This document shows positions 11,893 to 33,690 of a stretch of DNA of 64,000 bases, in pieces. The position numbers and the translations under genes are program-made. Each line of letters begins with the position of its first letter. Position 1 is the stretch's first letter. The notes under the pieces were generated by a model, which saw only the letters and a program-made list of their open reading frames with translations, did no database searches and was not told the origin of the DNA. Origin of the DNA: a virus; IMG/VR virus record IMGVR_UViG_3300027902_000008, positions 1 through 64,000 of that record; one strand, 5' to 3'.

Positions 11893-12537
11893 ATGACTAA
11901 TCTTGTGTGTAGAATAAACCAGACAGATGCTACGCAAAGATATTCAGGGTATTCTGGATTTTCAGGATATCCAGCAGATTATATTACCATTGACCTTGCT
12001 GCTGATAGGTTGATTTGGACAGCAGGTTCGGCTGAGGTCTACAATCATTGTGGGTATAGTCCTTCAGCTGCCCAATTGAATATAGCTGCTACTTTGATTC
12101 AACTGACAGATGTGGAAGTAGCGTATTGTTTTCTTGACGATGTTTCAAGTGCAGAAAAATTGCATCAAGTAATAGGGGCAGATAGCGGTGATGACCAATT
12201 TGTATTCTGTTTCAGTTTTGATGCTGCCACAGCTACAGAACCTACTCTTGAAGCTTGGGATACAAATGCTCACGCTACTACAGCTTTACAAGTTCTTGGT
12301 GCTGGGACACCTGCAAATAGTATGATACACGCTGTATGCACAACAGCAGCAAGCCCAGGAGCAAGCTGGGCAGGAACCAATCTTGCAGGAGCAAATACAG
12401 TTCTTTTGAATGACGGAACTGGTGCTATCGTAGGGGCAGCGGATTTGTATGCTAATATCTATGTGAAGGTTCCAGCATCTTATCCTACACCTGAGATAGC
12501 CACTCCAGTCCTTACAATTCGCTACACATATTCTTAA
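11893..12537 (+). CDS. Minor tail protein with SGX insert
   Basis: 214 residues, beta-rich, start set by AAGGAGG. An SGYSGFSGYP run lies near residues 17-26, just after the N-terminus, so the motif may join a short assembly anchor to the main domain. The rest is Ala/Thr rich with DAATATEPTLEAWDTNAHA and similar loops. Function not recognised beyond tail structure. Confidence 0.65.
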   Translation: MTNLVCRINQTDATQRYSGYSGFSGYPADYITIDLAADRLIWTAGSAEVYNHCGYSPSAAQLNIAATLIQLTDVEVAYCFLDDVSSAEKLHQVIGADSGDDQFVFCFSFDAATATEPTLEAWDTNAHATTALQVLGAGTPANSMIHAVCTTAASPGASWAGTNLAGANTVLLNDGTGAIVGAADLYANIYVKVPASYPTPEIATPVLTIRYTYS

Positions 12538-12566
12538 AGATTTAGATAGAGAATAGGAGGCAAAAG

Positions 12567-12953
12567 ATGCAAATTCCACTCTACGAATTAATTTTAGACG
12601 ATTATACAAGATATTATGGTGGCGGTATAGCCCAGCCACTATGGAGAGAAGCCCCAGATAAAGCAATCTTACATTTTAAATTAAGACTGCCTAATGGGGA
12701 TTTTCTTTTATTGGCAGGATATGAAGAATATAACTTCTTTATTGAAGTAATGGCAGATATATATGGTAAGAAAATTGAACAAAAACTTACATATATGTTT
12801 CTGTTGGGTTGTAAAGATGGAGAAGTAACTTCTTACAGGTTTGCTATTAATGATTATGGTCAGTATAAATTAGCGGATATGACAATAAGAAAGTTTCCAA
12901 AGGGTAAAGAATATAACGGCAGACCAACTTTTGGTTGGCATAGAGGTGAATAA
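12567..12953 (+). CDS. Hypothetical tail-region protein
   Basis: 128 residues behind AGGAGG. Aromatic and charged, with no repeats or membrane segment. It lies between minor tail protein genes and just ahead of the very large hub-like gene, whose ATG begins at the base after its stop. Possibly a tail-tip accessory or chaperone. Confidence 0.65.
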   Translation: MQIPLYELILDDYTRYYGGGIAQPLWREAPDKAILHFKLRLPNGDFLLLAGYEEYNFFIEVMADIYGKKIEQKLTYMFLLGCKDGEVTSYRFAINDYGQYKLADMTIRKFPKGKEYNGRPTFGWHRGE

Positions 12954-15900
12954 ATGGCAAAAGTCTTAGTAGCACAATCTACTTCTATTTGGTTAGCACT
13001 CCCTGATTACGCTGCTGAACGTGCATTATTAAAAACAACAGGAGGAAAGTTAGTTTGTTTCTATCATCAAGGAGCTACAGACCATATTGTTTATAATACT
13101 TCTGATGATGATGGTGCTACTTGGTTAGGAGAAAATACTGTAATATTAAGGACAGATATTGGAACTCAAGATATAGATGGTTTTAGCGTTTATAAAGATA
13201 CAAATGATGATATTTTATTTGTTTGTAATGGAGCAAGCAATGGAAGGATTTATTTTAGGAAATTAACTTATGGTGCAGGAACTTGGACTTTAGGTTCTGT
13301 TGTATTGATAGCCTCAGCGTATAATTATCATTGCCCTGTCATTTGCAGAAGGTCAAATACAGATATTTGGGTAGCAGCTTATGTAGCATATACAGCAAAG
13401 ATTCCTGCTTTTTACTCTACAAATGAAGGTGCTAACTGGACTGACAAAACCATTACTCCCTCTGGTGCAGATAAAACAAATTATGCTGGTGATGTAGATA
13501 TAATGGCTAAAGGGACTTATATCTGGCTATTTGTTTATTGTAGATGGCTGTCTTCTGTTCAGAGAATAAGGGTTTATCAATATGATTCTGCTTTTGATAC
13601 AGGAACGGATATAAATACAAGCACGGGAGTGTCTTCAAGTATTTCAAGCCTATGTGCCTTAAAGATAACTGATACCAATATTTGGGTTGCTGGGAGAACA
13701 AGGGCAGGTATAAAGATATACAATTATAATGGTTCAGTATGGGATGGCGGAACTGCACTTACAGGCAATGGTTCTTCAGATGGATTTCCTACAATAAGCA
13801 GTGTTAATAGTTTACCTTGGATGGCTTGGATAGATAATTACTTTTATGTAAAATATAGAAAGTTTGATGGAGCAACGTGGCAAGCAGCAGTTCAATTAGA
13901 TTATACAGGAGACCAATTAGAGCCAGCTATCGCCTTGCCATCTGATACTGCTAATTTTTATGTTTCTTGGGGTGATTATTCTACTCCTAAAAATCTTTGG
14001 ATTGAGAAAATAGCAGGAGTAGTTCCTCCAACTGAAGTTTTAGCAGATATTAATATTGATACAAGATTTTTACAATCTGTTATAAGCGACATAAATAATG
14101 ATATAAGATTTTCTCTTTACATAGAACTTTTTGGAGATATCTCAACTGATATAAGAATTTCAAGTTCTATTACGCAGGATATTCATACTGATATAAGATT
14201 CACTAATGGAAGAGATATAAATGTTGATATTAGGACTCGCCTTGAGCATATAGAAGATATTAACTTTGACTTTAGATATTTCTTCGGAAATATAGAAGAT
14301 ATATCTACAGACATCAGAACAAGAAGACAGGTTATTGGGGACATTAAAGAAGATGTCCGTTTTCTTAAAAGAGTTATAAGCGACATAAGCACTGATATTA
14401 GATTTGACAAGATTTACTATAAAACTTTTTATGGAAATGCAACTATTGAAGTTGATTCAGAGCAGAATTTCTATGGTAATGCAGAGATATTACAGCCTAC
14501 TCCCATACGTCCTGCAGGTCTCACAGCAACCGATATGCTAAAGGGAGACCTGATAAAACTTCGTTGGAATGTTGATGCCAATTATGGATACAATATCTAT
14601 ACCACTAATCCAGGAGGTAGGATTAAGAGAAATGCTTATGTAATTTTAGGTTATTCTGGTTATTCAGGGTATAGCGGTGGAGAATTTTTAGTTGGTAATC
14701 TTACTCACGATGTAGCATATACTTTTGTAGTGGTTGGTGTAAATGGAGAAGGAGATGTAAGTGTAGATAGCACCTCTGTTATTGCAACTCCTACTTTTCC
14801 TAACTTTTCTGATGGAGTAGCGAGTAGGTTTACCACATATACTGCTCAGGTAAAGATAAATGGGTCATTAAGAGCTGATATAAATCTTCAAAATATATCT
14901 TTGGGATTTGGAACATCCCCAGCCACAGCAAGTTTTACTATTCCAATAGACCCTTCAACTGGTGGTCTTCCAGCACTTGATGATACAGTTGAGTGTATTG
15001 TTAATGGAAGAAGTATTTTTAAAGGGATAATCAAAAACAAAAAGAAAAACATATCTTCAGGTGGTAAATCAGTAAGTTATATTGCCTATAGTAATGCCAT
15101 AAACTATAATCTTTCTTCTGTTGATTGGGATTATATTCTTGAGATAAAGAACCTGTATAATTTGGACGTTACAGACCAAACTTGGCTACAGGCTTATGAA
15201 ACGGTGGCTAATTTCCAAGGGAATTACAGGCTGTATTACAATATGCAAACAGATACAATAGAATGGTATCAGCTTGGCACGGGATATTGGAATAGGACTA
15301 TTGAATTAGGGAAAAATATCCTTGAATATGACATTACGGAAGACATAGTTAATAAGGTAATTAAGGTTACTCTAAGAGGTGCCAGAAAGAAATATGTAAA
15401 AGATTGGCAACCTTTAGATTTCATTAGAACCGCTGTATCTACTTATGAATCTAATACTGCCTTAGCATATGAATATACTGCAATTCTTGAAGGATTTAAT
15501 ATAGGAGATATTCAAGTAGAGGCATATGAAAGTCTTGGTCAGCCTGAATATACTCTTGATGCTAATAAGTCTGTGGTTCCTTCCGATGTTTATATTGCTG
15601 GTTCAAGCGGTCCAAAAAGGACGCAGTGGGGAGATGCAACTAAAGACCCGAAACAAGTTGTGACTAATTGGAAAAATCCTAAAACAGAATGGAGACCTGC
15701 AAGCGTTAAGATAGATTATGTATATGAAACTGTAGGAGCAGTTCCTGTTCCTTCAGACCAGAACATAGGCAATCGTCAAGTGCCTATGGTGGCAAAGTTA
15801 ACCTTAACTTCAGAGCCTAAGATTTATGGTGCAATGATAGGTTTTGGTAATGCTAAAAGAGATGGTAGGATTCCTGCTGAAGATATTAACTTTGGTTTCA

Positions 15901-16472
15901 TTCATTGGGCTGAACCTCCTTCTCAAAGAATGTCTCCTTTCAGGGTATCATATTCCTATGAAGAAGAATTACCAACTACTCTTGATGCAGGAAGCGGTAG
16001 TCCCTCAAGAACTGTAACTGATACACAATATCAGATTGTAGTTGATGATTTACACGGATTTTATAATCAAACTTATGTAGTAGACCAAATGACTCAAAGG
16101 GTTGGCGGAGAGCTTGCCAAGGTTAACCTTCCTAATATAAGCGGTAGGATTAAGATACTTGGCGATGAAACATTAGATTTAAAAACTCTTGTTGAAGTTG
16201 ATGGTCAGTTGCTTGATGTTATTAGGGTAACTCACGATTTTACAAATGGCTTTACAACTGATATAGAACTTACTAATGAGAAGTTTAGGGTAAATGTTCC
16301 GCCTTATCAAGAGAGAATGAATACAGTTGAATATTGGACAAAGATTACCAGAACCCAATATAACTTAGACCAATTGGCAAGGCAGACACAACAGCAACTT
16401 TCAACCCTTTATAATGTTCAACATCCAGTTATGCCTATTCCAAAAACACCTTATGCCATTTATGGAGACTAA
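12954..16472 (+). CDS. Large multidomain tail hub / tip protein
   Basis: 1172 residues. Residues 1-350 look like a sialidase-type beta-propeller with Asp-box-like SDDDGATW and STNEGANW motifs. Residues 361-487 hold eight degenerate DI..DIR repeats of about 16 residues. Residues 515-625 resemble a fibronectin III domain with a YSGYSGYSGG insert. From residue 630 (YTAQVKINGSLRADINLQNIS then FTIPIDPSTGG) the pattern matches baseplate-hub or tail-associated proteins. Probably the central tail-tip protein that binds or probes the cell surface. Domain calls come from motifs, not searches. Confidence 0.7.
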   Translation: MAKVLVAQSTSIWLALPDYAAERALLKTTGGKLVCFYHQGATDHIVYNTSDDDGATWLGENTVILRTDIGTQDIDGFSVYKDTNDDILFVCNGASNGRIYFRKLTYGAGTWTLGSVVLIASAYNYHCPVICRRSNTDIWVAAYVAYTAKIPAFYSTNEGANWTDKTITPSGADKTNYAGDVDIMAKGTYIWLFVYCRWLSSVQRIRVYQYDSAFDTGTDINTSTGVSSSISSLCALKITDTNIWVAGRTRAGIKIYNYNGSVWDGGTALTGNGSSDGFPTISSVNSLPWMAWIDNYFYVKYRKFDGATWQAAVQLDYTGDQLEPAIALPSDTANFYVSWGDYSTPKNLWIEKIAGVVPPTEVLADINIDTRFLQSVISDINNDIRFSLYIELFGDISTDIRISSSITQDIHTDIRFTNGRDINVDIRTRLEHIEDINFDFRYFFGNIEDISTDIRTRRQVIGDIKEDVRFLKRVISDISTDIRFDKIYYKTFYGNATIEVDSEQNFYGNAEILQPTPIRPAGLTATDMLKGDLIKLRWNVDANYGYNIYTTNPGGRIKRNAYVILGYSGYSGYSGGEFLVGNLTHDVAYTFVVVGVNGEGDVSVDSTSVIATPTFPNFSDGVASRFTTYTAQVKINGSLRADINLQNISLGFGTSPATASFTIPIDPSTGGLPALDDTVECIVNGRSIFKGIIKNKKKNISSGGKSVSYIAYSNAINYNLSSVDWDYILEIKNLYNLDVTDQTWLQAYETVANFQGNYRLYYNMQTDTIEWYQLGTGYWNRTIELGKNILEYDITEDIVNKVIKVTLRGARKKYVKDWQPLDFIRTAVSTYESNTALAYEYTAILEGFNIGDIQVEAYESLGQPEYTLDANKSVVPSDVYIAGSSGPKRTQWGDATKDPKQVVTNWKNPKTEWRPASVKIDYVYETVGAVPVPSDQNIGNRQVPMVAKLTLTSEPKIYGAMIGFGNAKRDGRIPAEDINFGFIHWAEPPSQRMSPFRVSYSYEEELPTTLDAGSGSPSRTVTDTQYQIVVDDLHGFYNQTYVVDQMTQRVGGELAKVNLPNISGRIKILGDETLDLKTLVEVDGQLLDVIRVTHDFTNGFTTDIELTNEKFRVNVPPYQERMNTVEYWTKITRTQYNLDQLARQTQQQLSTLYNVQHPVMPIPKTPYAIYGD
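14034..14415 (+). repeat. DI..DIR coding repeats in hub protein
   Basis: Eight units with the core Asp-Ile-x-x-Asp-Ile-Arg-Phe/Thr (for example DISTDIRIS, DIHTDIRF, DINVDIRT, DISTDIRF), spaced about 15-17 residues apart. They link the propeller and fibronectin-like parts and may form a beta-solenoid or extended spacer. Confidence 0.75.
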
Positions 16473-18133
16473 TGGTTGATAAATGTCCTATATGTTATAA
16501 TGATATCACTAACTATGGTGAATCTGGTTATTCTGGTTTTACAGATGACCCTTTAAAGACACCTACGCATTTTATTACTTCTTTAAGAGGTGCTGTTATG
16601 ATAAGGGCTCCTCATATAACGGAATTAAGAGATAAGATTAACTATTATGAATCTCAATTAGGTGCTGTAAGTGGTTATTCTGGTCTTTCTGGGTATGCTC
16701 TTACCACTTGGACAGATATACAGGCTGATAAGTTTGAAGCAAGACCTCAGTATATTAACGAATTAAGGATTGCTATAGAAGGGGTATTAAATACCTTGGG
16801 TGTTCTTTTGGCAGATTGGTTAAGTTATGATGAAAATGGAGTTCCTACTCTTGGTATAAGCGGTTGGCTTGATGGAAACAGATTAACCAAAAATCAGATA
16901 GTAAGAGGTATGCACATAGAAGAATTAAGAAAAGCAATACCTACTGATGTAATTATTTTTGTTTTTGAGTCTTATAATGGTTATTGGTTTTACGAATGGT
17001 ATGCCTTTTTAGCACCCTATAAAGAAGGAGACACCGATTTAATTGTTACGAGGTTAGAAAATTCAAATTTTTTACTTCCTAAGCCAATATGGGGAGGCGG
17101 AACATATTCTTCACTATGCACTGATGGTGCTTATATTTATGGCGTTGCTCCCGTTATCATTTCTCCCACTCCTCCCGAAACATATAATTATATTTTATGC
17201 AAATGGAGTTTAAATGGTGCATTGATTAACAGTAGAATTATTTATACTGGTCTTGAAATGCTTCCTTATCCAAGAACAATAGTTGGAGATACTTCTTTAT
17301 ATCTACTTATATCTATGGGTTACTATGGTCTCAATTATATACTTAAAATAAACAAGGATACTTTGGTTGAGGAAGCAAGCGAGGCAACAACTATAACTTG
17401 GCACGGAGTAACGAGTGATTTTGCTTTGGATGATTTAAAAATAGATAAGACTTATTTATATACTTTTTCTTTGGGACCAGAAAATTATGCTGGTGGTGCA
17501 CACGCAAGCCCTTGGTTTGATAGTGGTTATCCAATAGTAACCTTTGTTTATATGTGGATGAATAGCACTATGGTTGAGATAAGGGATAAGAATACCCTTG
17601 TGTTATCAGATACTTTTTATTCAAATAATGCAGAAGAAATCATCTATCCTGGTGCAAGTGGTTCTTTCACATTTTATAAACCGTTAATTAGTCCAAATGA
17701 TGTTATGCGTAATGGTAATATGGGTATAGATTCTTTAGGGAATTTTTATTATTGGGAACGTCAGATGAGGGTAGATTATTATTGGACTGGAGTTCCTCCA
17801 CACGTTTGGGAAGATTTTCATTATTCTGTAACCAATATCCAAGATAATTATATGAAACATACTTGGAAGAATACCAGAACTATTCTTAGGACTCGTTCAA
17901 TACCAAGCCCTGATTATTATGAAGATACAGCTATAACTCTTGGGAATACTTATGCTTATTCAAATCAATTTAACGGTAATTCTGGTTACAGCGGAGAGTT
18001 AATAGTGAGGAAGATAGATGACCAAGTATTGAAATTAGACCTAACGCAACTTACTTTTAATTCTACAGTATATATTATAAATCAGATTGGTAAGATATTC
18101 TCAAGTTATGAATGCAGGTTTTCAAAACCATAA
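16472..18133 (+). CDS. Tail protein, putative receptor-binding, SGX inserts
   Basis: 553 residues starting at an ATG that overlaps the hub stop. It opens with CPICYND and then carries three short SGX insertions (ESGYSGF, VSGYSGLSGY, NSGYSGEL). Between the first two is the helix HITELRDKINYYESQLG, echoed by QYINELRIAIEGVL and HIEELRKAI, a threefold internal repeat. The C-terminal 350 residues are aromatic-rich and beta-like, suitable for a receptor-binding or propeller-like domain. Last large gene of the tail block. Confidence 0.65.
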   Translation: MVDKCPICYNDITNYGESGYSGFTDDPLKTPTHFITSLRGAVMIRAPHITELRDKINYYESQLGAVSGYSGLSGYALTTWTDIQADKFEARPQYINELRIAIEGVLNTLGVLLADWLSYDENGVPTLGISGWLDGNRLTKNQIVRGMHIEELRKAIPTDVIIFVFESYNGYWFYEWYAFLAPYKEGDTDLIVTRLENSNFLLPKPIWGGGTYSSLCTDGAYIYGVAPVIISPTPPETYNYILCKWSLNGALINSRIIYTGLEMLPYPRTIVGDTSLYLLISMGYYGLNYILKINKDTLVEEASEATTITWHGVTSDFALDDLKIDKTYLYTFSLGPENYAGGAHASPWFDSGYPIVTFVYMWMNSTMVEIRDKNTLVLSDTFYSNNAEEIIYPGASGSFTFYKPLISPNDVMRNGNMGIDSLGNFYYWERQMRVDYYWTGVPPHVWEDFHYSVTNIQDNYMKHTWKNTRTILRTRSIPSPDYYEDTAITLGNTYAYSNQFNGNSGYSGELIVRKIDDQVLKLDLTQLTFNSTVYIINQIGKIFSSYECRFSKP

Positions 18134-18745: not shown

Positions 18746-19282
18746 ATGCGTTTAAATAAGAAAGCAGAGGTATTCACTCTTACGGTTTTAATTGCCGTAG
18801 GGATTGCTATGTTTTTATTGGGGACTACAAATAATCCAATAAAGACAATCTTTGGTTTGGGTAATGCTGGACAAAAAACCAAACAATCAGTTATTACCAA
18901 AACTGAAAGTTACCCTGTATTTGTTAAGGATGTAAATACAGGTAAGTTGTATGTTTTGCAGACAACCAAATCAGAGACTTCCACCCTGAATACCAATGAA
19001 GAGCCAAAAATGACCATCTGGCAAAAGTTGTTAGCACTTCCGAGATTATGGCTTATATTGATGATTTTAGGGATATTCTTCCCGCCAGTAGCAGCTATTA
19101 TGGGAGTGATAAACAAGACGCTTTGGAATAAGGCAAAGCAGATAGTGGGGGGAGTGGAAGAGTCCTTGAAAAACCTTGAAACCACTCAGCCAGATGCCAA
19201 GCAGAAGGTTTTAGACACATTATCTAAAAAATATGATTCCAGCACGAAGTTGTTTGTATCTAAGATTAAGAGCAAGTTATAG
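18746..19282 (+). CDS. Two-pass membrane protein
   Basis: 178 residues behind AGGGGGTG. Hydrophobic segments at residues about 9-26 and 96-124 flank a polar loop of about 65 residues; the C-terminal 50 residues are a charged helix. It is the last gene before the strong terminator and closes the late operon. It might be a lysis or virion-membrane accessory protein; not recognised. Confidence 0.65.
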   Translation: MRLNKKAEVFTLTVLIAVGIAMFLLGTTNNPIKTIFGLGNAGQKTKQSVITKTESYPVFVKDVNTGKLYVLQTTKSETSTLNTNEEPKMTIWQKLLALPRLWLILMILGIFFPPVAAIMGVINKTLWNKAKQIVGGVEESLKNLETTQPDAKQKVLDTLSKKYDSSTKLFVSKIKSKL

Positions 19283-19288
19283 AAGAAT

Positions 19289-19337
19289 ACGCCCATAGGT
19301 TCCGAGGTAGTTTGACCGCTTATGGGCGTTTCTTTTT
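19289..19337 (+). terminator. Intrinsic terminator of the late operon
   Basis: Nine perfect base pairs (19289-19297 with 19321-19329), a 23-nt loop with a possible inner GGT/ACC pair, then TTTCTTTTT. It marks the end of the virion transcript. Confidence 0.85.
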
Positions 19338-19580
19338 GGCACCGCCCTGTTTTAAGCCCTTCTTTGCCTCCTATTTGCCCCGCAGAGCCAAAATTCTCTA
19401 AAAATCAAAGCCCTCTATGACCTTTTTGAAAACGCCTGTAAACGCAAATTAGAGCCGAATTTCCCCTTTTTAACCCTTGCCAAAGGGGTAAGAAGAGAAA
19501 TCAGGCAAAACCGAACCTGACAGCGTCGGGAAATGACCTATTTGCCAAAACTGTCTTAATGTTGGAATATGATAAAATTA
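19338..19580. other. Intergenic region without genes
   Basis: No open frame with a ribosome site on either strand. It holds two hairpins, CCCCTTT/AAAGGGG (19463-19469 and 19482-19488) and TCAGG/CCTGA (19501-19505 and 19516-19520), and C-rich stretches unlike the neighbouring genes. It separates the late terminator from the promoter at 19581. Confidence 0.5.
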
Positions 19581-19609
19581 TTGACAATAATATAATGAAA
19601 TGGTATATT
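19581..19609 (+). promoter_or_regulatory. Consensus sigma70 promoter
   Basis: TTGACA at 19581-19586, exactly 17 bp, then TATATT at 19604-19609. Transcription should start near 19616. No protein gene starts within 630 bases downstream, so its main product appears to be the structured RNA. Confidence 0.8.
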
Positions 19610-19616
19610 TATTATA

Positions 19617-20236
19617 GAAATATAAAGATGATATATCCGCCCTGTGTGGAGGTTCTTTGAAAAAGAAAGGTTAGGAGTAAGTAAGGGGAAAAGCCCCTGA
19701 AGCGAGGCAGGTAAAACATCGCCCTGTGTGAGAGTCCCTGCTGAGTAGCAAAGGAGTTCCTGAGTGCTGGCATAGAACCAGAGGAAGGACAGAACGGATG
19801 AGTAGGAGAGAAACCGAAAGATTACTTTGCGAAATACCCTTGAAAGCCGATAACCATAAGACCAATTCCGATGACAAGGATAGGGGCGGTTAAAACCTGC
19901 CGAATGGTTCAAAACAATAAAGTCCTTTAGACTTGCTACGAAAGCAGACTTCTAAGCGGTAGCACGAGTAGGCTGGTATTCCAATCTTAATTGCCTGTAA
20001 ATATAGCCAATTATGGCTTTGAGCCTTAGAGCTCTCAAAAACAGGCTTATATTAAGGAAGCGAATACTGTAAATGCAGAAATGCGAAACTCTGTAATCCA
20101 AAAGAGGTATGCATTATAGTTGAAGTGGCACCGAAACAACATAGATTTGTGGAAAGCCACCAATGACACAAATGAACTTACCCATATTACAGAGTTAGCA
20201 GGAACTGGCTATTCCTGCTCTGATGAGCGAGCCAAA
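19617..20236 (+). ncRNA. Large structured noncoding RNA candidate
   Basis: About 620 nt with no supported gene, directly behind a consensus promoter and richer in GC than its neighbours. Complementary segments include CCGCCC 19637-19642 with 19884-19889; AGGGG/CCCCT 19684-19698; TGCTAC/GTAGCA 19934-19964; CTTAAT + GCCTGT (19986-19998) with ACAGGC + ATTAAG (20041-20056), enclosing two hairpins (AGCCA-ATTA-TGGCT, GAGC/GCTC); an 11-bp helix 20087-20097 with 20186-20196 enclosing GTGGC/GCCAC; and AGCAGGAA/TTCCTGCT 20197-20219 stacked right after it. Size and phage setting recall GOLLD or ROOL RNAs, but I could not match either. No terminator is seen at the 3' end, so it may be processed or continue into the next operon. 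Confidence 0.7.
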
Positions 20237-20250
20237 AAAATGAGGTGAAA

Positions 20251-20373
20251 ATGAGAAAATATAGACCTGATTTAAACTTTTGGCAGTTGTTAAAGCTTGC
20301 AGATAAAGGCGACAAAAGAGCACAGAGAGAAATTAAGAGAATAGAGAAATCAAAAGGAAAGGAGGCGGTATGA
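20251..20373 (+). CDS. Small basic protein
   Basis: 40 residues behind TGAGGTGAAA, opening MRKYRPDLNFWQLLKLADKG and ending in a Lys/Arg-rich helix. Its stop overlaps the next start (GTATGA). First protein gene after the structured RNA. Function unknown. Confidence 0.5.
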   Translation: MRKYRPDLNFWQLLKLADKGDKRAQREIKRIEKSKGKEAV

Positions 20374-20926: not shown

Positions 20927-21175
20927 ATGAAAATCAAGGTTGCAAGGCTTTACAAATTAAGCGGTGATAAACCGCTTAAAGCATTAGTGGACATCTCTCT
21001 TGATGATAAGTTTATTGTTAAGGGATTGAGAGTTATTGAAGGAAAGAAAGGGTTATTTGTATCTATGCCAAAAGAAAAAGGTGTAGATAAAAGGTGGTAT
21101 GACACGGTTACGATTACGGACATAACCACAAAGAAAGAGATTGAAAAAGCAATATTGGAAGTTTACGCAAAATAA
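20927..21175 (+). CDS. spoVG: SpoVG-family DNA-binding protein
   Basis: 82 residues. The pattern KALVDISLDDKFIVKGLRVI followed by GKKGLFVSMPKEK matches the SpoVG family, which binds DNA and RNA in Firmicutes, spirochaetes and others, and is common on phages. It has the full family length, with TTGAGGTGAAAAT upstream. Likely an early regulator or nucleic-acid chaperone in this operon. Confidence 0.85.
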   Translation: MKIKVARLYKLSGDKPLKALVDISLDDKFIVKGLRVIEGKKGLFVSMPKEKGVDKRWYDTVTITDITTKKEIEKAILEVYAK

Positions 21176-29496: not shown

Positions 29497-29643
29497 ATGA
29501 AAAAGCATAGAATATTGTATCAGTTAAAGAAGACAAGGTTTCTTAATCCAAAAGTTAGGAGGGGTGGTAATGTTAAAAATAGACGAGATGTGGAAGGAGG
29601 GGTATGCCAAGCGGAGTCTACATTAGGACTGCATATCACATAG
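29497..29643 (+). CDS. Doubtful small basic ORF before HNH gene
   Basis: 48 residues from an ATG adjacent to the previous stop, basic in the first half. The second half runs through two ribosome-site-like purine tracts and into the HNH gene, so the true gene may be shorter or a remnant left by HNH insertion. An 18-residue frame at 29570-29626 also has a ribosome site. Confidence 0.3.
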   Translation: MKKHRILYQLKKTRFLNPKVRRGGNVKNRRDVEGGVCQAESTLGLHIT

Positions 29644-30011
29644 AGATAAACAGGGAAAGCCATAAAGGGATAACTTCGGCAAATAAAGGTAAGTTTGGCG
29701 ATAAAAGCTCAAAATGGAAAGGGAAATTTATAAATCATAATGGTTATACTATGGTTTATTGCCCAAACCACCCATATGCTATATCATCAAGAGTGTATCA
29801 ACATCGTTTAAAAATTGAGAAGTGCATTGGAAGATATTTATTACCTGAAGAAGACACGCACCACTTGAATGGAATAAAAACTGATAACAAGCTTAGAAAT
29901 CTTATGGCATTTTCTAACCACTCTGCTCATATAAGATTTCATAAAAATCCTAATAATGTTAAAGCAAGAGAAATTATTTTTAATGGGAGGAAGTATGCTA
30001 AAAATAACTGA
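29604..30011 (+). CDS. HNH homing endonuclease
   Basis: 135 residues behind GGAGGGGT. It opens MPSGVYIRT, a NUMOD-like start common in phage HNH enzymes, and carries the HNH core VYQHRLKIEK then EEDTHHLNGIKTDNKLRNL and a final SAHIRFH. Free-standing HNH enzymes nick or cut related phage genomes to spread. Related to the gene at 33208 at both ends (IIFNGR versus IIFDGR). Confidence 0.85.
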   Translation: MPSGVYIRTAYHIEINRESHKGITSANKGKFGDKSSKWKGKFINHNGYTMVYCPNHPYAISSRVYQHRLKIEKCIGRYLLPEEDTHHLNGIKTDNKLRNLMAFSNHSAHIRFHKNPNNVKAREIIFNGRKYAKNN

Positions 30012-32990: not shown

Positions 32991-33227
32991 ATGGTGAAGC
33001 CAAATGAGAAATTCCATTCCTGTGATTGTGATATGAGATATATCAGAGAAGGAGATAGCACTGAAACCATCAAGGCATTCTTTCAGGCACATCCTTTTAT
33101 GCTTGGTTTTTTAACTGGATTTATTTTTAAGAAAGGAACGGATACTTTTGCAAAGATTCTCCAAGAAGTTGCAGAAGAAAATTATAGAAAGAAAGGAGGC
33201 TGGGGTAATGCCAATAGGAGTGTATAA
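32991..33227 (+). CDS. Hypothetical protein
   Basis: 78 residues behind AGGAGG. Starts with a small Cys/His patch (HSCDCD) and has a hydrophobic stretch, PFMLGFLTGFIF, that could be a membrane helix. Overlaps the HNH start by 20 bases. Function unknown. Confidence 0.58.
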   Translation: MVKPNEKFHSCDCDMRYIREGDSTETIKAFFQAHPFMLGFLTGFIFKKGTDTFAKILQEVAEENYRKKGGWGNANRSV

Positions 33228-33690
33228 GAGAACCAAAAAGCATTTAGCGAGATTAAAGAAGCAAATATTGAAATATAGTTTTTCAAAAAGTGGTAGAAAA
33301 CTATCTTTTACTTCTCGCAAGAAACAAGCTAAAACTATGTTGGGACATACAGTTTCAATAGCCACCCGTAATAAAATCAGAAGAAAGCTTCTTTTGAAAG
33401 ATGGAACAAGAAGAATCTATAATGGTTATGTTAATGTGTATGACTCTAAGCATCCAAGAAGGAGAAGGGTGTTTGAACATCATCTTATCATAGAGAAATA
33501 TATTAGAAGATTAATAAGGAAAGGTGAGGAAGGGCATCATATAAATGGCATTAAAACAGATAACCGTCCTCAAAATTTGATGTTATTTCGCAATAAAAGT
33601 GCACATACAAGGTTTGAAAATAAATTATTATTAAAGAAATCACCGATTAAGAAGTCAGATATTATATTTGATGGAAGGCTATTGCCTTAA
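33208..33690 (+). CDS. HNH homing endonuclease
   Basis: 160 residues behind AAAGGAGGCTGGGGT; a frame start at 33148 lies in the previous gene. Opens MPIGVYKRTKKH, has a NUMOD-like GHTVSIATRNKIRRK helix, and the HNH core EHHLIIEKYI, EGHHINGIKTDNRPQNL and SAHTRFE. Second copy of the family seen at 29604, with a longer basic linker. It borders the GTTNN repeat arrays. Confidence 0.85.
   Translation: MPIGVYKRTKKHLARLKKQILKYSFSKSGRKLSFTSRKKQAKTMLGHTVSIATRNKIRRKLLLKDGTRRIYNGYVNVYDSKHPRRRRVFEHHLIIEKYIRRLIRKGEEGHHINGIKTDNRPQNLMLFRNKSAHTRFENKLLLKKSPIKKSDIIFDGRLLP

What the first reader, a model, noticed from the sequence alone, without database searches (positions are those of the whole stretch)
19581..20250. 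Promoter-driven ~600-nt ornate noncoding RNA
A TTGACA-17-TATATT promoter is followed by about 620 nt without a supported gene but with many helices, including an 11-bp long-range pair (20087-20097 with 20186-20196) stacked on an 8-bp hairpin, and a multi-hairpin domain closed at 19986/20056. Composition differs from neighbouring genes. Size, phage origin and complexity recall GOLLD and ROOL, RNAs that assemble into cage-like multimers, yet I could not match either.
Basis: partly seen in the sequence, partly recalled or inferred. Interest (0 to 1): 0.9.

Follow-up and report, generated by a model that had tools for sequence, protein, structure and literature searches.

The report
Self-cleaving ribozyme in phage leader RNA
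The 'ornate' stretch is the long untranslated front end of a phage's early-gene transcript, and its striking long-range helix plus hairpin are the arms of a hammerhead ribozyme, an RNA that cuts itself just before the first gene, here with an unusually large insert and a long leader of unknown purpose.

Summary
The promoter, the lack of a coding gene and the 11-bp/8-bp helices are really there. The helices are not part of a GOLLD/ROOL-like cage, though. They are stems III and I of a type II hammerhead ribozyme (20082-20234). It has the full catalytic core (GAA, CUGAUGA, a U16.1-H17 cleavage site), a 10-bp stem III, an 8-bp stem I, a short stem II, and the 5-bp loop I/3'-tail pseudoknot typical of type II hammerheads. 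It lies 24 nt before an SD-preceded start codon; the median among 92 such phage type II hammerheads tallied here is 25. Predicted cut: U20196|A20197. It would split an early-operon transcript into a ~580-nt untranslated 5' RNA and an mRNA that starts with the stem I hairpin. Two features are unusual. Stem III carries an 88-nt insert with a possible 5+7-bp pseudoknot (161 comparison hammerheads, found mostly with a short-stem-III pattern, have at most 29 nt). About 470 nt of noncoding leader precede it; only a 71-nt multi-hairpin domain of that leader folds better than chance. I found no homologues, so covariation could not be tested, and Rfam has no match for the leader. The leader's function stays open. 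Verdict: a new variant of a known kind.

The parts
19288..19335 (+). terminator hairpin closing the upstream (tail-gene) operon
   Evidence: sequence 19285-19340 folds at -22.0 kcal/mol, z -4.0, followed by TTTCTTTTT
19581..19609 (+). sigma-70-type promoter TTGACA-17-TATATT with extended -10 (TGG); start of transcription expected near 19616
   Evidence: start position inferred
19613..20081 (+). noncoding leader, about 470 nt, of unknown function
   Evidence: no + strand ORF >=38 aa, no Rfam or Pfam match, raised GC
19986..20056 (+). multi-hairpin domain (CUUAAU/AUUAAG, GCCUGU/ACAGGC, AGCC/GGCU, UUGAG/CUCAA)
   Evidence: fold z -2.5, 1.7% of shuffles as stable; MFE structure
20082..20084 (+). 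hammerhead stem II, 5' strand (UGC)
   Evidence: pairs with 20227-20229 GCG, one of the three a G-U pair
20085..20088 (+). hammerhead core G12 A13 A14 and A15.1
20088..20097 (+). hammerhead stem III, 5' strand (ACUCUGUAAU)
   Evidence: perfect complement of 20186-20195
20098..20185 (+). 88-nt insert closing stem III, with a possible H-type pseudoknot GUGGC 20125-20129/GCCAC 20156-20160 and AUUUGUG 20145-20151/CACAAAU 20167-20173
   Evidence: 39 of 1000 shuffles have such a pseudoknot, so suggestive only
20186..20195 (+). hammerhead stem III, 3' strand (AUUACAGAGU)
20196..20197 (+). predicted self-cleavage site, U20196 (H17) | A20197
   Evidence: position between stems III and I in the canonical core; cleavage not tested
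20197..20219 (+). hammerhead stem I hairpin AGCAGGAA-CUGGCUA-UUCCUGCU
   Evidence: 8 perfect pairs
20220..20226 (+). hammerhead core CUGAUGA
20227..20229 (+). hammerhead stem II, 3' strand (GCG)
20230..20234 (+). 3' tail AGCCA, forming the 5-bp pseudoknot with loop I UGGCU (20206-20210)
   Evidence: the type II hallmark described in PMC3088659
20243..20373 (+). ribosome-binding site (GAGGTG) and first gene of the early operon (ATG 20251, 40 aa)

Best explanation
The stretch is the long 5' leader of the phage's early operon and ends in a type II hammerhead ribozyme. Transcription starts near 19616, downstream of the terminator of the tail-gene operon. As the polymerase passes about 20234 the hammerhead folds and cuts its own transcript between U20196 and A20197. 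This yields a ~580-nt untranslated 5' RNA ending in a 2',3'-cyclic phosphate on stem III, and an early mRNA with a 5'-hydroxyl and the stem I hairpin shortly ahead of the first ribosome-binding site. The likely purpose is to give the early mRNAs a defined, hairpin-capped 5' end and to detach the structured leader. Shown here: the sequence and pairing anatomy and the genomic position. Inferred from the family: self-cleavage and its products. Guesswork: the benefit to the phage, and any role of the released leader or of the stem III insert.
For: Every core position of the hammerhead is present, with stems of 8 (I), 3 (II) and 10 (III) bp. Counting stems alone (21 pairs), 1 of 3000 dinucleotide shuffles of the whole 64-kb window reaches the value; the usual best is 9-12. 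In addition there is a 5-bp loop I/3'-tail pseudoknot (UGGCU/AGCCA), the published hallmark of type II hammerheads (PMC3088659). The hammerhead region folds better than shuffles (z -3.05). The same scan returned 161 short-insert type II hammerheads, mostly from viral contigs, with the same stem lengths (mode 8 for stem I, 2-4 for stem II, mostly 6-11 for stem III) and pseudoknot (mode 4-5 bp). Of 155 unique sites, 92 (59%) have an SD, a start codon and an open frame just downstream, against 11% at random positions; the median distance is 25 nt and here it is 24. Rfam itself sees a weak Hammerhead_II (20.2 bits), though with a nearer GAAAC that leaves a poor stem III. Precedent: the HHphage ribozyme of haloviruses HF1/HF2 lies 13 nt before the first gene of an early polycistronic transcript, and the mapped 5' end is within 3 nt of its cleavage site (PMC3088659).
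Against: No homologue of the locus was found, so conservation is untested. The cleavage triplet is GUU, seen in only 4 of 161 comparison sites against 156 GUC, so cleavage may be slow. Stem II is only 3 bp, one of them G-U. The best Rfam score is below the gathering threshold (20.2 against 37). A relative (G010), matched by the upstream membrane-protein gene and a terminator-like hairpin after it, has a short leader without a hammerhead, so the element is not essential to this phage group. PMC3088659 found 4 of 18 consensus-fitting hammerheads inactive in vitro.
Confidence: 0.82

Rival explanations
1. The ~580-nt 5' piece is a noncoding RNA with its own function (a new large phage RNA class), and the hammerhead serves to make its exact 3' end. 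This is compatible with the best explanation but puts the purpose on the other product.
For: Own strong promoter, 837 nt without a + strand ORF, GC well above the genome, a significant multi-hairpin domain. Phages are known to use self-cleaving RNAs to finish small RNAs: theta ribozymes next to phage tRNAs (PMC10879173) and hammerhead-interspersed vrRNA arrays (PMC13142463).
Against: 19613-19985 folds no better than shuffles. No homologue in phages, plasmids or IMG/VR with the searches made. No Rfam match. The hammerhead sits where phage mRNA-leader hammerheads usually sit.
Confidence: 0.25
2. The 88-nt insert in stem III is a sensor (for a metabolite, or for a protein such as the SpoVG-like product encoded 0.7 kb downstream), making this a natural regulated hammerhead that tunes early-gene expression.
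For: The insert can form a 5+7-bp pseudoknot and is far larger than in the 161 comparison hammerheads (<=29 nt). A SpoVG domain protein (PF04026, E 3.5e-20) is encoded at 20927-21175. PMC3088659 discusses regulated hammerheads and a mouse hammerhead with a very large loop.
Against: The pseudoknot arises in 39 of 1000 shuffles. Stem III is 10 bp and takes no part in the stem I/II tertiary contact, so a large loop there could simply be neutral. No riboswitch family matches.
Confidence: 0.18
3. The hammerhead is a chance or decayed look-alike in a degenerate, formerly coding stretch.
For: Open antisense frames of up to 118 aa; no homologues found.
Against: About 3e-4 chance from stems alone over the whole window, plus the family-typical pseudoknot and the typical distance to the start codon. 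The antisense frames have no Pfam match above noise.
Confidence: 0.06

Closest known systems
Type II hammerhead ribozyme (Rfam RF02276; PMC3088659)
   Same: Circular permutation (open stem II), full core, stem lengths, loop I/3'-tail pseudoknot, phage genome, position just before a ribosome-binding site
   Different: 88-nt insert with a possible pseudoknot in stem III (comparison sites at most 29 nt), GUU instead of GUC, a ~470-nt leader in front, Rfam score below threshold
HHphage of haloviruses HF1/HF2 (PMC3088659)
   Same: Hammerhead a few nucleotides before the first gene of an early polycistronic transcript
   Different: HHphage has a variant core and an archaeal host; this one has a consensus core and a long leader
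Tandem phage hammerheads flanking genes (A. tumefaciens, C. scindens in PMC3088659; L307, L276, L316 here)
   Same: Hammerhead directly before a gene; in L307 type II before SD and start codon
   Different: Only one hammerhead found in this window, at the head of the operon, none between genes
GOLLD and ROOL RNAs
   Same: Phage-encoded noncoding RNA of several hundred nt
   Different: No Rfam match, no tRNA island, contains a hammerhead, 5' part not detectably structured

Membership tests
Type II hammerhead ribozyme | Invariant core C3 U4 G5 A6 N7 G8 A9 and G12 A13 A14 | tested here: met
   CUGAUGA 20220-20226, GAA 20085-20087
Type II hammerhead ribozyme | A15.1-U16.1 pair and H17 at the cleavage site | tested here: met
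   A20088-U20195, H17 = U20196
Type II hammerhead ribozyme | Stems I and III closed, stem II open | tested here: met
   stems I, III, II of 8, 10 and 3 bp; stem III closed by 88 nt instead of a short loop
Type II hammerhead ribozyme | Loop I/3'-tail pseudoknot (most members) | tested here: met
   UGGCU 20206-20210 with AGCCA 20230-20234
Type II hammerhead ribozyme | Rfam RF02276 gathering score | tested here: not met
   20.2 bits against 37, aligned to a nearer GAAAC. This is a detection threshold, not a structural feature; the long stem III insert is the likely cause.
Type II hammerhead ribozyme | Self-cleavage activity | not testable with these tools
   needs in vitro transcription
GOLLD / ROOL | Match to the family covariance model | tested here: not met
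   no match at gathering in the window or at E<=10 over 19281-20260
GOLLD / ROOL | Homo-oligomeric cage | not testable with these tools
   needs cryo-EM or native gels
Group I / group II intron, RNase P, HEARO | Match to the family models | tested here: not met
   none at E<=10
VIPR vrRNA array with hammerheads | GGY-NN tandem repeats | tested here: not met
   no run of 6 or more GGYNN in the window; best 5-nt GG periodicity in the RNA is 3

The most novel reading that the evidence does not exclude
A phage noncoding RNA of about 580 nt with its own function, whose 3' end is cut by a hammerhead that is itself regulated through a pseudoknotted stem III insert, so that one self-cleaving event both finishes the RNA and switches on the early mRNA.
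Probability: 0.12. Interest if true: 0.8.

Novelty: new variant of a known kind. Interest (0 to 1): 0.42.

Why it matters
Natural hammerheads in phages are common, but why phages keep them is unsettled. This one falls below the Rfam threshold, probably because of its large stem III insert, so similar ones may be undercounted. A single ribozyme at the head of an early operon, with a possibly structured insert and a long leader, is a clean case for testing whether phage hammerheads shape mRNA ends, release noncoding RNAs, or respond to signals.

Tried and rejected
GOLLD, ROOL, introns, RNase P, HEARO: no Rfam match even at E<=10. Decayed coding region: antisense ORFs without Pfam matches. VIPR vrRNA array: no GGYNN repeats. 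The weak blastn hit in phage D6E lies in an unannotated open frame; that in Mycobacterium phage Rey (E 0.7) was taken as chance. Rfam found no RNA family in either locus at E<=0.5. Capsid-protein relatives were fetched: no credible hammerhead in the six records read; the hits in L121 and L128 were taken as chance.

Full report
Setting. The window is the first 64 kb of a 92,940-base phage record. Virtually all genes run rightwards. Tail and other structural genes fill 1-19.3 kb; replication and other early-type genes (ATP-dependent ligase, Cas4-like nuclease, primase-helicase) follow from 20.25 kb (the tail/structural label rests partly on position and protein character). The finding lies between the two blocks. 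A terminator hairpin closes the upstream block at about 19288-19335 (z -4.0). A near-consensus promoter with an extended -10 follows at 19581-19609. The first start codon of the next block with a good ribosome-binding site is at 20251.

Observation. The 837 nt from 19283 to 20119 hold no + strand frame of 38 aa or more and are the largest such gap of the window. As a whole the RNA does not fold better than dinucleotide shuffles (19613-20196: z -1.2), and its first 373 nt are indistinguishable from them (z -0.25). The multi-hairpin domain 19986-20056 (z -2.5) and the region 20082-20234 (z -3.05) do fold better.

Identity of the 3' part. A permissive Rfam search returned Hammerhead_II at 20.2 bits, below threshold, with a GAAAC at about 20132 that leaves almost no stem III. 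By eye, the GAAA at 20085-20088 is the right one. H17 is U20196. A scan for core plus stems gives 21 paired positions here; only 1 of 3000 shuffled windows reaches that. A further feature, not used in that score, also fits: loop I UGGCU pairs with AGCCA just after stem II, the pseudoknot found in most type II hammerheads (PMC3088659).

Comparison set. Their stems and pseudoknot match this one in size. Their stem III loops are at most 29 nt; here it is 88 nt. The pattern and the cut-off of 30 nt used themselves limited the loop, but a separate scan of IMG/VR for GUU sites with 85-115 nt gaps found no further convincing case, nor did a truncated scan of genome contigs. Long inserts with a GUC site, or with gaps of 43-84 nt, were not scanned in IMG/VR. 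In 92 of 155 unique sites the hammerhead stands directly before an SD and start codon (median 25 nt; 24 nt here; random positions 11%). Contig L307 shows the pattern repeatedly, for example CUGAUGAGCAGCCGAUGAGGUGAACAGAUG, much like the window's CUGAUGAGCGAGCCAAAAAAAUGAGGUGAAAAUG.

Mechanism. From this anatomy the most likely event is co-transcriptional self-cleavage at U20196|A20197, which frees a ~580-nt leader and gives the early mRNA a 5'-hydroxyl end capped by the stem I hairpin just before the ribosome-binding site. Cleavage is inferred from the family, not shown. The nearest published parallel is HHphage of haloviruses HF1/HF2, 13 nt before the first gene of an early transcript, where the mapped 5' end coincides with the cleavage site to within 3 nt (PMC3088659).

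What stays open. The 88-nt insert can form a 5+7-bp pseudoknot, which 39 of 1000 shuffles also can, so a sensor role is only a possibility. In a relative (G010), aligned by the upstream membrane-protein gene and a terminator-like hairpin after it, the leader is short and lacks the hammerhead, so the element is variable among related phages.

Verdict. The GOLLD/ROOL reading is not supported. The core of the finding is a type II hammerhead in a typical phage position, with an atypical stem III insert and a long leader of unknown role.

Noticed in passing
L307 (- strand), L276, L316, L267, L335: Viral contigs with 6-9 type II hammerheads within a few kb; in L307 the spacers printed open with an SD and start codon, as if every gene were cut out as its own mRNA.
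   Followed up: partly
window 20927-21175: SpoVG-domain protein (PF04026, E 3.5e-20), a family known (own knowledge) to bind nucleic acids, encoded 0.7 kb after the ribozyme.
   Followed up: no
window 29604-30011 and 33148-33690: By eye, NUMOD/HNH-like homing-endonuclease relatives; no intron was found in the window by Rfam at gathering.
   Followed up: no
window 52986-53059: Single tRNA-Ile with anticodon TAT as read by ARAGORN.
   Followed up: no
window 11893-18133 and L092 8594-9583: Repeated GYSGYSG- or GWSG-type glycine-rich stretches in proteins of the structural block.
   Followed up: no
L360 (- strand) 8554: 18 perfect copies of GGTCA in tandem in a viral contig that also holds a type II hammerhead.
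   Followed up: no
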